From contig NCGG01000009.1 in the NCBI GenBank assembly GCA_002278855.1, positions 28,535 through 92,534 of the forward strand: 64,000 nucleotides of DNA. The letters run 5' to 3'. The stretch comes from Sphingomonadales bacterium 28-55-16 (GTDB taxonomy: Bacteria; Pseudomonadota; Alphaproteobacteria; Sphingomonadales; Sphingomonadaceae). A model generated the notes under the pieces. It had not been told where the DNA came from and made no database searches. It saw only the letters and a program-made list of their open reading frames with translations. The number at the start of each line of letters is the position of its first letter. Within the stretch, counting starts at the first letter, position 1. This document shows positions 7,788-10,298 of the stretch, piece after piece. A program made the position numbers and the translations under genes.

Positions 7788-8696
7788 TTAAGCCCGCTGC
7801 TTATCCGACAATAAATATTCCAGAATGAAATGCGGCGCCGTTAGCGTCGATATCAGAATGAAGGCTGACCGGACGACTCCCATGTCTGCCGGAACATCGC
7901 CCTGATATAAGAACATCACTACACCTATCCCAAGTGACAATGCCGATACTGCCGCAATGATTACTGCCTTTTTAAAAGGCGAAAGCGCGCCTGTCTCGCG
8001 CAAGGCGTCTGCCATATGGCGGGGTGAATGCAGCCCGCAGAAGAAAACCGCAAATGCAACGAGTGGCGGCAGCAACAGCGCTGCAATGACGCACGCAAGC
8101 ACCTCAAGTGCACTTTGCTTATCATTATGACTGAACGCCCAATATGCGAAGACCAAGCTTCCCAATGCGGCTGGAACCGAAGCTGCGCCGAGTATGGCGG
8201 CGATTACCACACCATTTTGGCTACCCGTCAACGCCGCAAATATCATGGCGACATCATTTGGGCTTGCAAGCGCGGGCAGCGCAACCAAAGCCCACCCGAC
8301 CATCATAGCCAAAAACGGGTCAACTCCGCCACGCCAGTCACGGCTGAAATGCACGATAGAGATGAGAAGAAAAGAAATGAGCGCCAGCTCAGGAAGCACA
8401 ACCCATAAAAGCACCATGGCCGCCGCGCATATAAGATAGCTGCCAATGATCTTGGCCTTACCAGCCATGCCCTTTTGTCCGAAATGGGCCGCGGCTATTT
8501 CAACGTCGAGCGTTCCGTGCGGGATGCCTGCAAGGACGATTGCCAAGGCAGCCAGCATATTGACATGCGTGCCACCCATGACGCCCCAAAAGCGATCAAC
8601 GATAACGAGCAGCAGAGTAACTAATGGTAAAGCAAACAGGCGCAACATTTTTGAGAATGTTGCGCCTGCATAATGCGAGTATGAAATTGTATTCAT
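7788..8696 (-). CDS. blh: Brp/Blh-family beta-carotene 15,15'-dioxygenase
   Basis: An integral membrane enzyme that splits beta-carotene into two retinal molecules, supplying the chromophore for the neighbouring rhodopsin. The iron-binding histidines of the family are all visible, in order: AGIPHGTLD, SIVHFSRDW, CGLHSPRH and TAPHFILEY. The rest is about eight hydrophobic helices. The frame is open up to 8759, which would overlap the end of the rhodopsin gene. I prefer ATG 8696 (302 aa), 40 bases after the rhodopsin stop, but no strong ribosome-binding site decides it. Rhodopsin-blh pairs are a standard phototrophy cassette. Confidence 0.93.
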   Translation of the reverse strand: MNTISYSHYAGATFSKMLRLFALPLVTLLLVIVDRFWGVMGGTHVNMLAALAIVLAGIPHGTLDVEIAAAHFGQKGMAGKAKIIGSYLICAAAMVLLWVVLPELALISFLLISIVHFSRDWRGGVDPFLAMMVGWALVALPALASPNDVAMIFAALTGSQNGVVIAAILGAASVPAALGSLVFAYWAFSHNDKQSALEVLACVIAALLLPPLVAFAVFFCGLHSPRHMADALRETGALSPFKKAVIIAAVSALSLGIGVVMFLYQGDVPADMGVVRSAFILISTLTAPHFILEYLLSDKQRA

Positions 8697-8704
8697 ATAG
8701 GAAT

Positions 8705-8726
8705 GTACGCCACCGAAGCGGCGTAC
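8705..8726 (-). promoter_or_regulatory. Hairpin between rhodopsin and blh
   Basis: A perfect 7-bp inverted repeat, GTACGCC (8705-8711) and GGCGTAC (8720-8726) with an 8-nt loop, fills most of the 40-base gap after the rhodopsin stop. There is no T-run. It could protect the rhodopsin mRNA or lower Blh expression relative to the pump; that is inference. Confidence 0.5.
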
Positions 8727-8736
8727 GTCCAAGTTC

Positions 8737-9498
8737 TTAACCGAAGGCCTTGTCACCATATTCGGCGCGCGATTTGCGTACGGCGATCATGTAGATCAAG
8801 ACGCCAACGCCTGCCTTTGCGATCAAATCGGCAATTGTGTAGCCGACTTGCACGCCCACGGTTACATCCGAGCCGCTCAGGTTCGTGTACGGGATCATGT
8901 ATACGATTGGGTAGAAACCCCATGATGCGAAGGTCAACAAACGTGCCTTCTTCACCAACTCACGTACACTGTCTGGCTGGCTGTTGATCGATGCACCGAG
9001 ACCGGCAAACAATTGCCACATGATGTAGACAAAAGGAATTGCCGACAATGTGCCCCACAATACGCGGGTTGGAATGTCTGCAGCGATTTCGCCTGGATAA
9101 CCTAAGATGATCATCAATGCCGCTGCACTTCCAAGCTTGAATGCTTTGGAGACGGTTTCTTCTTCGCTCAAACGCATCACGAGGATAAGTTCAATAAGAA
9201 GCAATGGCACGGTCAGCAACCAATCGACATAACGGTAGGCATCGTTAAATGCATAACCGCTTGCGGCCACTATCCCGCCTTCGACGGAATAGGCACCTTG
9301 CCAGCTTTCGAAAATACGGAAATAATGATAAGCCGCAATGGCCGTAACCAAACCGGAAATGGTAAGTGCGGTCTTGTAGGCTGGCCCGACTTGCGAACGG
9401 CCGAGCCACAAAAACAGCGTTGCCGCTGCCATGGTGGCAAATGTAAATGAAAATGCATTGTAGACCAAAGAATATTGGCCAAATGTAAGATTTTCCAC
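8737..9498 (-). CDS. Proton-pumping microbial rhodopsin, green-tuned, with carotenoid fenestration glycine
   Basis: A 253-aa seven-helix retinal protein that exports protons in light. Compared from memory with green proteorhodopsin, the key residues are H58, R89, proton acceptor D92 with T96, proton donor E103 (a DTE motif in RYVDWLLTVPLLLIE), D224 and the retinal-binding Lys K228 (ADLIAKAG). L100 occupies the spectral-tuning site (Leu for green, Gln for blue). G149 in LWGTLSAIPF aligns with the helix-E position that is Phe152 in proteorhodopsin and Gly156 in xanthorhodopsin, where Gly opens a window for a carotenoid antenna. The start is GTG 9498 behind GGGGGAGAG. It forms an operon with blh and diverges from a LOV-HTH regulator. 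Confidence 0.96.
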   Translation of the reverse strand: MENLTFGQYSLVYNAFSFTFATMAAATLFLWLGRSQVGPAYKTALTISGLVTAIAAYHYFRIFESWQGAYSVEGGIVAASGYAFNDAYRYVDWLLTVPLLLIELILVMRLSEEETVSKAFKLGSAAALMIILGYPGEIAADIPTRVLWGTLSAIPFVYIMWQLFAGLGASINSQPDSVRELVKKARLLTFASWGFYPIVYMIPYTNLSGSDVTVGVQVGYTIADLIAKAGVGVLIYMIAVRKSRAEYGDKAFG

Positions 9499-9551
9499 GT
9501 TTCTCTCCCCCTTTTAGCGACACCTCTAGGGTTGTCGGGAGCGTAGAAGGT

Positions 9552-9584
9552 AACCTATGCTTTCGATGTGTCAACCTATCCTTT
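9552..9584. promoter_or_regulatory. Candidate regulator-binding direct repeat in the rhodopsin/LOV divergent promoter
   Basis: AACCTATGCTTT (9552-9563) and AACCTATCCTTT (9573-9584) match at 11 of 12 positions and are exactly 21 bp apart, two helical turns. On the minus strand a -35-like TTGACA (9574-9569) overlaps the second copy, but I find no good -10, which suits an activator-dependent promoter. The LOV-HTH protein next door is the obvious candidate binder (inference). Confidence 0.5.
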
Positions 9585-9683
9585 ATACCATGTTTCTCTA
9601 TATTGCCTCCTGCGGCCGGTTAGTGCAGACATTAGAAGTACGTGCTGCAATGCGCCGATTGGATAGTGAGGAGGCAGTCCAAT

Positions 9684-10298
9684 TTGTCTGTTCTTGGCCA
9701 CAACAACCCGCGGCTGCATGCCCTTATCTCGAACAGTCCGATAGCGTCGGTCGTCAGTGATCCGCGTCAACGCGATAACCCTATCATTGCCTGCAATGCC
9801 GCTTTTTTGGAGCTGACGGGGTATGCCGAACATGAAATCATAGGACGCAACTGCAAATTTTTGGCTGGTCCAGGCACTGAGCCTTGGTTGAGTGAAACAA
9901 TAAGCAACGCAGTTAAGCGCCACACACCGGTTCTTGTCGAAATCCTCAATTACAAACGCGATGGAACGCCCTTTCGCAATGCGGTGCTGGTTGCGCCGAT
10001 ATTTGACGAAGAGGGCGAGCTTGAGTTCTTTCTCGGCTCACAGGTCGAACTGGAGGCTGGCGCGCCCATGTCGTATGAGAACCGGCGGATTGCCGCAGCA
10101 ACGGCGGTGAAGACGTTGTCACGGCGGCAACGCGAGGTACTGGCCGAAATGGCGCTGGGGCATCTCAACAGGCAAATTGCGTTCCGGCTTGGCGTCAGCG
10201 AACAGACGGTCAAAATGCATCGGGCATTATTGATGGAAAGATTGGGCGCCGCGACTTCCGCCGATGCCATTCGCATAGCTGTCGAGGCTGGCCTTTGA
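9684..10298 (+). CDS. EL222-type LOV-HTH blue-light transcription factor
   Basis: A 204-aa protein with a flavin-binding LOV domain (about residues 12-120) and a LuxR-type helix-turn-helix (about 138-204). The LOV signature GRNCKFLAGPGTEPWL contains the photoreactive Cys (C57), and ILNYKRDGTPFRNAV follows. The sequence tracks EL222 of Erythrobacter litoralis closely along its whole length, as remembered. There, blue light forms a Cys-flavin bond that frees the HTH to dimerise and activate transcription. The frame opens at GTG 9642, but a perfect AGGAGG at 9669-9674 lies 9 bases before TTG 9684, which I take as the start. It diverges from the rhodopsin-blh operon. Confidence 0.95.
   Translation: MSVLGHNNPRLHALISNSPIASVVSDPRQRDNPIIACNAAFLELTGYAEHEIIGRNCKFLAGPGTEPWLSETISNAVKRHTPVLVEILNYKRDGTPFRNAVLVAPIFDEEGELEFFLGSQVELEAGAPMSYENRRIAAATAVKTLSRRQREVLAEMALGHLNRQIAFRLGVSEQTVKMHRALLMERLGAATSADAIRIAVEAGL

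What the first reader, a model, noticed from the sequence alone, without database searches (positions are those of the whole stretch)
7788..10298. Rhodopsin-blh phototrophy cassette placed divergently against an EL222-type LOV-HTH blue-light activator
Seen: a proton-pump rhodopsin and its retinal-forming dioxygenase on one strand, and on the other a LOV-HTH protein with the photoreactive Cys (GRNCKFL) and LuxR HTH, sharing a 185-bp promoter region. Established: EL222 binds DNA as a dimer after blue-light activation. Inference: the cell uses a blue-light receptor to switch on a green-light proton pump, a compact light-controlled energy module. I am not aware of an established case where EL222 directly controls a rhodopsin operon.
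Basis: partly seen in the sequence, partly recalled or inferred. Interest (0 to 1): 0.85.

Follow-up and report, generated by a model that had tools for sequence, protein, structure and literature searches.

The report
Blue-light switch for a rhodopsin pump
A bacterium carries a gene for a predicted blue-light-sensing DNA-binding protein next to a predicted light-driven proton pump, and a DNA site resembling that protein family's known target lies just upstream of the pump gene and recurs in related bacteria, so blue light likely switches the pump on.

Summary
Confirmed: rhodopsin (8737-9498, -) and blh (7788-8759, -) face an EL222 homologue (9684-10298, +) across 185 bp. The rhodopsin's best relatives are xanthorhodopsins and it has the antenna glycine.

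The pairing recurs: 48 of the 80 closest relatives kept have a LOV-HTH within 1.8 kb of the rhodopsin, in three arrangements; 8 more have a decayed or missing one.

The window's best match to EL222's published operator lies between the genes. Outside the Sphingorhabdus-like group the exact EL222 consensus lies upstream of the rhodopsin in 18 of 36 LOV-linked loci and 0 of 22 others; after 24 of 31 looser sites a -10-like TA follows at exactly 26 bp. Ten genomes searched gave 11 sites: ten at the rhodopsin, one before a rhodopsin remnant.

Most likely this is a dedicated blue-light activator of an antenna-type rhodopsin operon. In the window's clade the promoter gained a consensus -35 and relatives lost the LOV gene at least three times, so light control may be loosening. 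The 'histidine kinase' reported beside the AAP5 xanthorhodopsin is most likely this LOV-HTH. Binding and light response are untested.

The parts
8737..9498 (-). xanthorhodopsin-type proton-pump gene (253 aa, GTG start); D92/T96/E103, K228, G149 equivalent to xanthorhodopsin G156
7788..8759 (-). blh, beta-carotene 15,15'-dioxygenase (makes retinal), ORF overlapping the rhodopsin end; same predicted operon
   Evidence: a Blh match follows the rhodopsin in most loci
9684..10298 (+). EL222-type LOV-HTH regulator (ORF open from 9642; likely TTG start at 9684)
   Evidence: start read from the sequence
9669..9674 (+). AGGAGG, predicted ribosome-binding site of the LOV-HTH gene
   Evidence: CCTCC kept in several relatives (by eye)
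9575..9592 (-). predicted operator CATGGTATAAAGGATAGG (12-bp core 9578-9589); within the best match to the published EL222 C120 operator in the whole window
9569..9574 (-). predicted -35 element TTGACA abutting the operator (derived state)
9547..9552 (-). predicted -10 element TACCTT; its TA is invariant in the 21 Sphingorhabdus-like promoters
9519..9536 (-). leader hairpin just upstream of the rhodopsin Shine-Dalgarno (GGGGGAG, 9505-9511), with compensatory changes in relatives; one mismatch in the window copy

Best explanation
The LOV-HTH protein likely activates the promoter of the neighbouring xanthorhodopsin-type pump and blh genes in blue light, by binding a conserved EL222-like site that lies directly upstream of the predicted -35 element. 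Shown by sequence: the genes, the conserved site, its fixed spacing to a -10-like TA, its link to the LOV gene and its rarity elsewhere in the genomes searched. Inferred: blue light forms the Cys-flavin adduct, the protein dimerises and binds, and RNA polymerase is recruited, as known for EL222. In the ancestral form the promoter lacks a good -35, so the activator would be needed. In the window's clade a consensus -35 arose, which would give activator-independent transcription with light adding to it, and sister lineages lost the LOV gene. The window's own LOV gene appears still under selection.
For: 1) Linkage: 48 of 80 relatives have a LOV-HTH within 1.8 kb, 8 more decayed or missing. In a separate sample 13 of 23; co-occurrence 17 of 23 genomes against 5.8 expected, P 4e-7. 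Gene order differs (divergent, upstream, downstream) while linkage persists. All 48 keep a Cys in the LOV motif.
2) Operator: the (truncated) C120 operator printed in PMC10521638 has its best match in the window, 14/20, at 9573-9592, rank 1 of about 128,000 20-mers. Exact consensus RGNCYWWRGNCY within 350 bp upstream in 18 of 36 LOV-linked loci, 0 of 22 without LOV neighbour; density 19.1 times that of the rest of the loci.
3) Promoter geometry: TA at offset 26 in 24 of 31 LOV-linked sites, every other offset scanned (4-39) at most 2; 2 of 11 sites without LOV neighbour. Composite site upstream of 26 rhodopsins against 0.08 expected. In co-directional loci the site lies at or after the LOV stop codon, so it is not the LOV gene's own promoter.
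4) Dedication: one site per genome in 9 of 10 genomes, at the rhodopsin; the tenth has a second, before a rhodopsin remnant. One exact site in the window's genome.
5) Helix and site vary together: K/K or R/K helix 31 of 32 with RGNCY sites; Q/K 12 of 12 with the Sphingorhabdus block; D or E at the second position 0 of 3.
6) LOV in the window under purifying selection, dN/dS 0.07 against L012.
Against: No binding, transcript or light measurement exists here. The window site misses the published consensus at two positions (10 of 12, both C to A). For several Sphingorhabdus-like loci (for example L004, L006) the best consensus match upstream lies elsewhere than the conserved block. The RTAT extension and the composite site were defined after seeing the sequences, and the loci are related, so the counts are not independent. 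8 Sphingorhabdus-like genomes keep rhodopsin without an intact LOV neighbour, so the regulator is dispensable there. 22 other rhodopsin loci have no LOV neighbour; of the 17 of these whose genomes I searched, 13 have an EL222-type gene elsewhere and 4 do not, and 11 of the 22 still have a looser site. The TTGACA-LOV-loss link rests on few events: independent-pairs sign test not significant, 2 pairs.
Confidence: 0.8

Rival explanations
1. In this genome the rhodopsin is now essentially constitutive: the consensus -35 (TTGACA) drives it, and the LOV-HTH only tunes it or mainly serves itself.
For: TTGACA abuts the operator in the window, in all 8 LOV-decayed relatives and in L010 and L012, but in none of the other 10 intact-LOV relatives. 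At least 3 LOV losses follow from the tree if loss is irreversible (L007 beside WIN, L009 beside L012, the rest), all in TTGACA lineages.
Against: The LOV gene and the operator in the window are intact; dN/dS 0.07 between WIN and L012. The sign test on independent pairs is not significant.
Confidence: 0.35
2. The LOV-HTH represses rather than activates the rhodopsin promoter when lit, or the shared site serves only the LOV gene itself.
For: EL222 represses when its site lies between -35 and -10 (PMC9614035 passage); in the window the divergent layout alone does not tell which gene the site serves.
Against: The site lies upstream of the -35, as in the light-activated pBLind design. In co-directional relatives it follows the LOV gene and keeps its spacing to a -10-like TA facing the rhodopsin.
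Confidence: 0.1
3. [quoted passage not shown]
For: The paper reports a kinase gene in the cluster and almost silent rhodopsin genes in its cultures (passages).
Against: The linked protein in S. glacialis has PAS and LuxR-HTH domains and no kinase domain match. The AAP5 protein found is 207 aa with the same two domains (P0040), by eye one residue from the linked S. glacialis one; proteins of this make-up are named 'histidine kinase' in databases (P0104, P0121). D/T/E and Lys of a proton pump are present in the window.
Confidence: 0.03
4. The linkage is inherited neighbourhood without regulation; the LOV-HTH controls other genes.
For: Many EL222-type genes in the family are unlinked to rhodopsin: of 75 genomes with one, 13 have it beside a xanthorhodopsin-type gene.
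Against: Three arrangements, scattered linked branches in the LOV tree, operator geometry tied to LOV linkage, near-single-copy operators at rhodopsin genes.
Confidence: 0.05

Closest known systems
EL222 (Erythrobacter litoralis LOV-HTH; PDB 8a5r, 3p7n)
   Same: homology over LOV and HTH, LOV residues, LuxR HTH; exact EL222 consensus sites in relatives
   Different: window site has two C-to-A changes; my ten searches of the held library showed no paper that gives EL222 a rhodopsin operon as target
Sphingomonas glacialis AAP5 xanthorhodopsin cluster (PMC7762795, passages seen)
   Same: LOV protein, xanthorhodopsin and blh in one cluster, syntenic in some other Sphingomonas according to the paper; the same kind of site lies before the S. 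glacialis rhodopsin (L048, L070)
   Different: authors read the neighbour as a histidine kinase and the rhodopsin as a possible sensor; here it is a DNA-binding protein and the rhodopsin its likely target; the layout in the window is divergent
pBLind, engineered EL222 promoter (PMC9614035 passage)
   Same: EL222 site directly upstream of the -35, activated by blue light
   Different: synthetic; the present promoter is natural
Vibrio campbellii proteorhodopsin (PMC3380642, passages)
   Same: proteorhodopsin transcript raised by light
   Different: regulator is RpoS1; the paper says that genome has no known LOV or BLUF protein
Halobacterium Bat, regulator of bacteriorhodopsin (PMC4844311 passage)
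   Same: a regulator, resembling some archaeal LOV-HTH arrangements, that mediates bacteriorhodopsin production
   Different: archaeal, described there as redox-sensing

Membership tests
EL222-type LOV-HTH | LOV core with photoreactive Cys and flavin-contacting N, N, Q | tested here: met
   Cys71, N103, N113, Q134 located; alignment to EL222. The roles of N, N, Q are recalled.
EL222-type LOV-HTH | C-terminal LuxR-type HTH | tested here: met
   GerE, E 2.2e-15
EL222-type LOV-HTH | light-dependent dimerisation and DNA binding | not testable with these tools
   needs purified protein
EL222-type LOV-HTH | site RGNCYWWRGNCY at the target | tested here: inconclusive
   window core 10 of 12; exact in 18 of 36 LOV-linked relatives outside the Sphingorhabdus-like group
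xanthorhodopsin-type proton pump | D/T/E triad and retinal Lys | tested here: met
   D92, T96, E103, K228
xanthorhodopsin-type proton pump | closest to xanthorhodopsins, glycine at the antenna position (G156) | tested here: met
   psXR, Gloeobacter rhodopsin, xanthorhodopsin top hits; G149 aligned with G156; role of the glycine from PMC13043013 passage. No rhodopsin family tree was built.
xanthorhodopsin-type proton pump | carotenoid binding and proton pumping | not testable with these tools
   biochemical
activator-dependent (LuxR class II-like) promoter | operator at fixed distance just upstream of the -35 region | tested here: met
   24 of 31 LOV-linked sites with TA at offset 26; TA at a fixed place in all 21 Sphingorhabdus-like promoters. 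The class II comparison is recalled.
activator-dependent (LuxR class II-like) promoter | weak -35 | tested here: not met
   window has TTGACA, 6 of 6; 10 intact-LOV relatives have 3 or 4 of 6
blue-light histidine kinase (AAP5 annotation) | kinase domain | tested here: not met
   none matched in the window or S. glacialis proteins; none in precomputed domains of AAP5 P0040

The most novel reading that the evidence does not exclude
The native job of one wide branch of the EL222 family is to switch on antenna-type xanthorhodopsin: a blue-light receptor with essentially one operator per genome, placed at the rhodopsin promoter, across Sphingomonadales and Caulobacteraceae. In Sphingorhabdus the circuit is caught being dismantled: the promoter gains a consensus -35, then the receptor gene is lost repeatedly. 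A conserved structured leader RNA on the rhodopsin message adds a second, possibly temperature-linked, input.
Probability: 0.5. Interest if true: 0.87.

Novelty: new variant of a known kind. Interest (0 to 1): 0.78.

Why it matters
EL222 is a much used optogenetic tool, while the passages I saw name no natural target for it. A 2012 paper states that molecular regulators of proteorhodopsin expression were not known in any other proteorhodopsin-bearing organism than Vibrio campbellii (PMC3380642 passage). This finding names a candidate regulator, its site and a spacing rule for a branch of rhodopsin phototrophs, and gives named strains that differ in exactly the predicted way: Sphingorhabdus wooponensis (L005: LOV decayed, TTGACA) against S. 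rigui (L016) and S. profundilacus (L019) (LOV intact, no TTGACA). It would also remove the kinase argument for reading the AAP5 xanthorhodopsin as a sensor.

Tried and rejected
Considered and rejected: chance adjacency; LOV autoregulation as the sole role of the site (in co-directional loci the site follows the LOV gene); rhodopsin as sensor with a kinase; green-proteorhodopsin membership. The second EL222-type gene of this genome (G000:C33, L002) has a different helix (TVQMH), and the ORFs next to it in L002 are not rhodopsin-related by eye.

Led nowhere or weak: the exact EL222 consensus is absent between the two genes (2 matches in the window, 1.88 expected). The independent-pairs test of TTGACA and LOV loss was not significant (2 pairs). 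E. litoralis itself was not identified among the 40 genomes of one genus searched with EL222 (best 73% identity), so the neighbourhood of EL222 itself remains unread. The plasmid collection gave two Polymorphobacter records. No Rfam family matched the leader. Literature: 10 searches used; searches returned no paper; one of two papers was relevant (PMC10521638). That I found no report of EL222-type control of a rhodopsin operon rests on these listings and on the CC-licensed library only. Kopejtka 2022 (PNAS), Rivera-Cancel 2012 and Ihalainen 2024 (JMB) are not held, and the last may overlap.

Rows dropped: of 43 rhodopsin matches I kept 23 (64% identity or more); dropped were 19 at 27-33% and one 60-residue piece at 65% (G010). 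From I kept the 83 matches with E of 1.5e-47 or lower (75 genomes, of 83 with any match). Error found on checking: the upstream stretch of L027 was mis-set to most of its locus, which gave a density ratio of 15.4; without it the ratio is 19.1. The 18 of 36 and 0 of 22 counts do not include L027. L010's LOV gene is counted as intact although one stop stands near its N-terminus; a 205-aa frame with both domains stays open after it.
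Full report
What is there. The window (G000:C40:28535-92534 of a 2.35-Mb genome) holds at 7788-9498 on the minus strand a rhodopsin and blh, and at 9684-10298 on the plus strand a LOV-HTH gene. The LOV-HTH protein matches EL222 over residues 28-218, E 1.3e-73. The rhodopsin's best solved relatives are psXR, Gloeobacter rhodopsin and xanthorhodopsin (E 8.8e-80 to 4.7e-77; green proteorhodopsin 1.9e-23), and G149 aligns with xanthorhodopsin G156, the antenna glycine (role of the glycine from a passage of PMC13043013). 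Pump residues D92, T96, E103 and K228 are present. The named nearest relatives are Sphingorhabdus species.

How common the pairing is. One scan of genome contigs gave 403 relatives of the rhodopsin, of which the best 80 were kept, so the survey is of close relatives. A LOV-HTH (tblastn over 150 bits) lies in 48 of the 80 loci, at most 1,726 bp from the rhodopsin, and all 48 keep a Cys in the LOV motif: 12 divergent as in the window, 34 upstream on the same strand, 2 downstream (L066 on the opposite strand, L073). One of the 48, L010, has a stop near the N-terminus with a 205-aa frame open after it. Of the 22 Sphingorhabdus-like loci, 12 are counted as LOV-intact, 8 have a decayed LOV gene or no detectable remnant (L057), and 2 (L013, L027) have no usable upstream DNA. 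Of the 58 others, 36 have a LOV neighbour and 22 do not; L067 among these has only about 355 bp upstream. In a separate sample of 298 same-family genomes, 23 have a xanthorhodopsin-type gene (64% identity or more), 75 have an EL222-type gene, 17 have both (5.8 expected, Fisher P 4e-7, relatedness not corrected), and 13 of the 23 have the two within 1.4 kb (dropped rows are listed under Tried and rejected). The LOV tree does not put the linked genes in one clade: the divergent Sphingorhabdus group, a Brevundimonas-rich group, the Sphingomonas group and an Erythrobacter row next to EL222 are separated by unlinked rows. Support is partial (15 of 59 branches starred), so repeated linkage is likely rather than proven.

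The operator. The published EL222 consensus RGNCYWWRGNCY and a truncated C120 operator were taken from passages of PMC10521638. C120 scored against all 20-mers of the window on both strands has its single best match, 14 of 20, at 9573-9592, between the two genes. This is the most conserved block of the intergenic region in 21 Sphingorhabdus-like promoters. Outside that group the exact consensus occurs within 350 bp upstream of the rhodopsin in 18 of 36 LOV-linked loci and 0 of 22 unlinked ones, at 19.1 times its density in the rest of the loci, counted over all loci with at least 150 bp upstream (correcting 15.4). Typical forms are TACGGCCTAAAGGCCGTAT (Brevundimonas) and TACGGCACAAAGCCCGTAT (S. 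glacialis). With a looser rule (10 of 12 plus RTAT, defined after seeing the sequences) it is 31 of 36 against 11 of 22. The window's core fits 10 of 12, and in several Sphingorhabdus-like loci a chance 12-mer elsewhere upstream scores as well or better.

Promoter geometry. In those 31 LOV-linked sites, TA stands at offset 26 after the core in 24; no other offset from 4 to 39 has more than 2. In the 11 unlinked sites it does so in 2. The composite of core, RTAT and TA at 26 is found within 300 bp upstream of 26 rhodopsins (24 LOV-linked; L049 and L052 not) against 0.08 expected from the rest of the same loci, where 6 occur in 1.3 million strand-bases. One of these 6 is a second operator between the LOV gene and the next gene in L050. 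In the Sphingorhabdus group TA stands at offset 25. The site is upstream of the -35 position, as in the engineered light-activated pBLind promoter (PMC9614035 passage). In co-directional loci it follows the LOV gene, so it would serve the rhodopsin.

Dedication. The extended pattern TAYGGNMYAARGNCCGTAT (1 mismatch allowed) was searched in ten genomes chosen by me from the LOV-linked set. It is found 11 times: once at an intact rhodopsin in each genome (the rhodopsin match lies within about 250 bp downstream in all ten), and once more in S. glacialis E6.1. That extra site precedes a remnant matching rhodopsin residues 1-40 (62.5%, E 6.9e-11) at the same distance as in the intact copy (L145). 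The pattern read backwards matched once in ten genomes. Because the pattern came from rhodopsin upstreams, only its rarity elsewhere is informative. In the window's own genome CATGGTATAAAGGWTAGG occurs once exactly, with one other match at 3 mismatches and one for the control.

Helix and site. Classed by the two residues around TV/TI in the recognition helix (x-T-V-y-MH), K/K and R/K proteins have RGNCY sites in 31 of 32 loci (exception L071, which has its own palindrome), Q/K proteins (all Sphingorhabdus-like) have the Sphingorhabdus-type block (loose pattern RGTA...GGTTG) in 12 of 12, and proteins with D or E at y have neither (0 of 3); L066 (E/K) is also without. These are few clades, so this is supportive, not independent proof. 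That y corresponds to a DNA-contacting lysine of NarL is recalled.

The window's own state. At the -35 position the window has TTGACA. So do all 8 loci with a decayed LOV (6 by script; L009 and L018 read) and, among loci with intact LOV, L010 and L012. The other 10 intact-LOV loci have 3 or 4 of 6 matches. L019-L022, used as outgroup or branching early, lack TTGACA, so it is likely derived. On a tree of rhodopsin plus blh, L007 (decayed) pairs with the window (100/99) and L009 (decayed) with L012 (100/100), so at least 3 losses are needed if loss is irreversible. TTGACA needs 2 changes; the independent-pairs sign test is not significant. L010's LOV groups with WIN and L012 while its rhodopsin-blh groups with L004 and kin, suggesting that LOV and promoter moved together by recombination (inference; dS). 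The window's LOV is under purifying selection (dN/dS 0.07 to L012; rhodopsin 0.06). L005, S. wooponensis, is a named strain, so decay is not only a feature of metagenome assemblies. 7 of the 8 genomes with a decayed LOV keep an EL222-type gene elsewhere at 53-55% identity.

Correction to the literature. [quoted passage not shown] In S. glacialis (L048) the order is LOV-HTH, rhodopsin, blh, and an oxidoreductase gene. The LOV-HTH there has PAS and LuxR-HTH domains and no kinase domain match. A protein named for Sphingomonas sp. AAP5 (P0040) is 207 aa with the same two domains and by eye one residue from it; same-make-up proteins are called histidine kinase in UniRef (P0104) and NCBI (P0121). 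That P0040 is E2E30_05035 is inferred. [quoted passage not shown] that the 2022 paper found xanthorhodopsin only in light and below 16 C is recalled, and that paper is not held.

Leader RNA. The rhodopsin leader is structured. In 15 Sphingomonas-type leaders, 31 pairs are 90.5% paired, with 41 double-change cells against 17.3 in shuffles (0 of 500) and at most 16 when slid. On another measure, pairs with a double change, 54 of 500 shuffles did as well. In 18 Sphingorhabdus-like leaders a 6-bp hairpin shows double changes at 4 of 6 pairs, 8 cells against 1.6 (1 of 500). Slid versions reach 7 cells, so the short hairpin is weaker evidence. No Rfam match was found there. Temperature control is a guess.

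Verdict. Light dependence in this genome remains inferred and may be loosened by its consensus -35.

Noticed in passing
L041, L047, L048, L049, L061, L064, L068-L070, L072, L079-L083, about 205 bases upstream of the rhodopsin: Long covarying leader RNA on Sphingomonas-type rhodopsin messages, with a hairpin reaching the Shine-Dalgarno; no Rfam hit there in the two of these loci searched, L048 and L070.
   Followed up: partly
L145 1501-1860 (S. glacialis E6.1 genome): A second copy of the operator precedes a rhodopsin remnant (residues 1-40, 62.5%) at the same distance as in the intact copy.
   Followed up: partly
G000:C33:25489-26073 (L002 1456-2088): Second EL222-type LOV-HTH gene of this genome (53% identical), helix SEKTVQMHR, beside ORFs that by eye resemble murA, a short-chain reductase and a ferrochelatase; target unknown.
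   Followed up: no
10407-11453: Glycine-zipper protein with repeated GYYDxxGRW-like units and a weak EAGR_box match, kept next to the LOV gene in several Sphingorhabdus-like loci.
   Followed up: no
L054, L060, L062 upstream of the rhodopsin: LOV-HTH proteins with D or E in the recognition helix have other palindromes (for example CTACAGGGTAAACCCC-like) between LOV and rhodopsin: a possible second operator type.
   Followed up: partly
L050 4551 and 5882: Two operator copies: one before a gene between LOV and rhodopsin, one before the rhodopsin.
   Followed up: no
L032, L044, L065 (genomes G308, G312, G321): Rhodopsins without LOV neighbour keep a looser site, and their genomes hold an unlinked LOV-HTH that groups with the Sphingorhabdus ones in the tree (87% support): possible control in trans.
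   Followed up: partly
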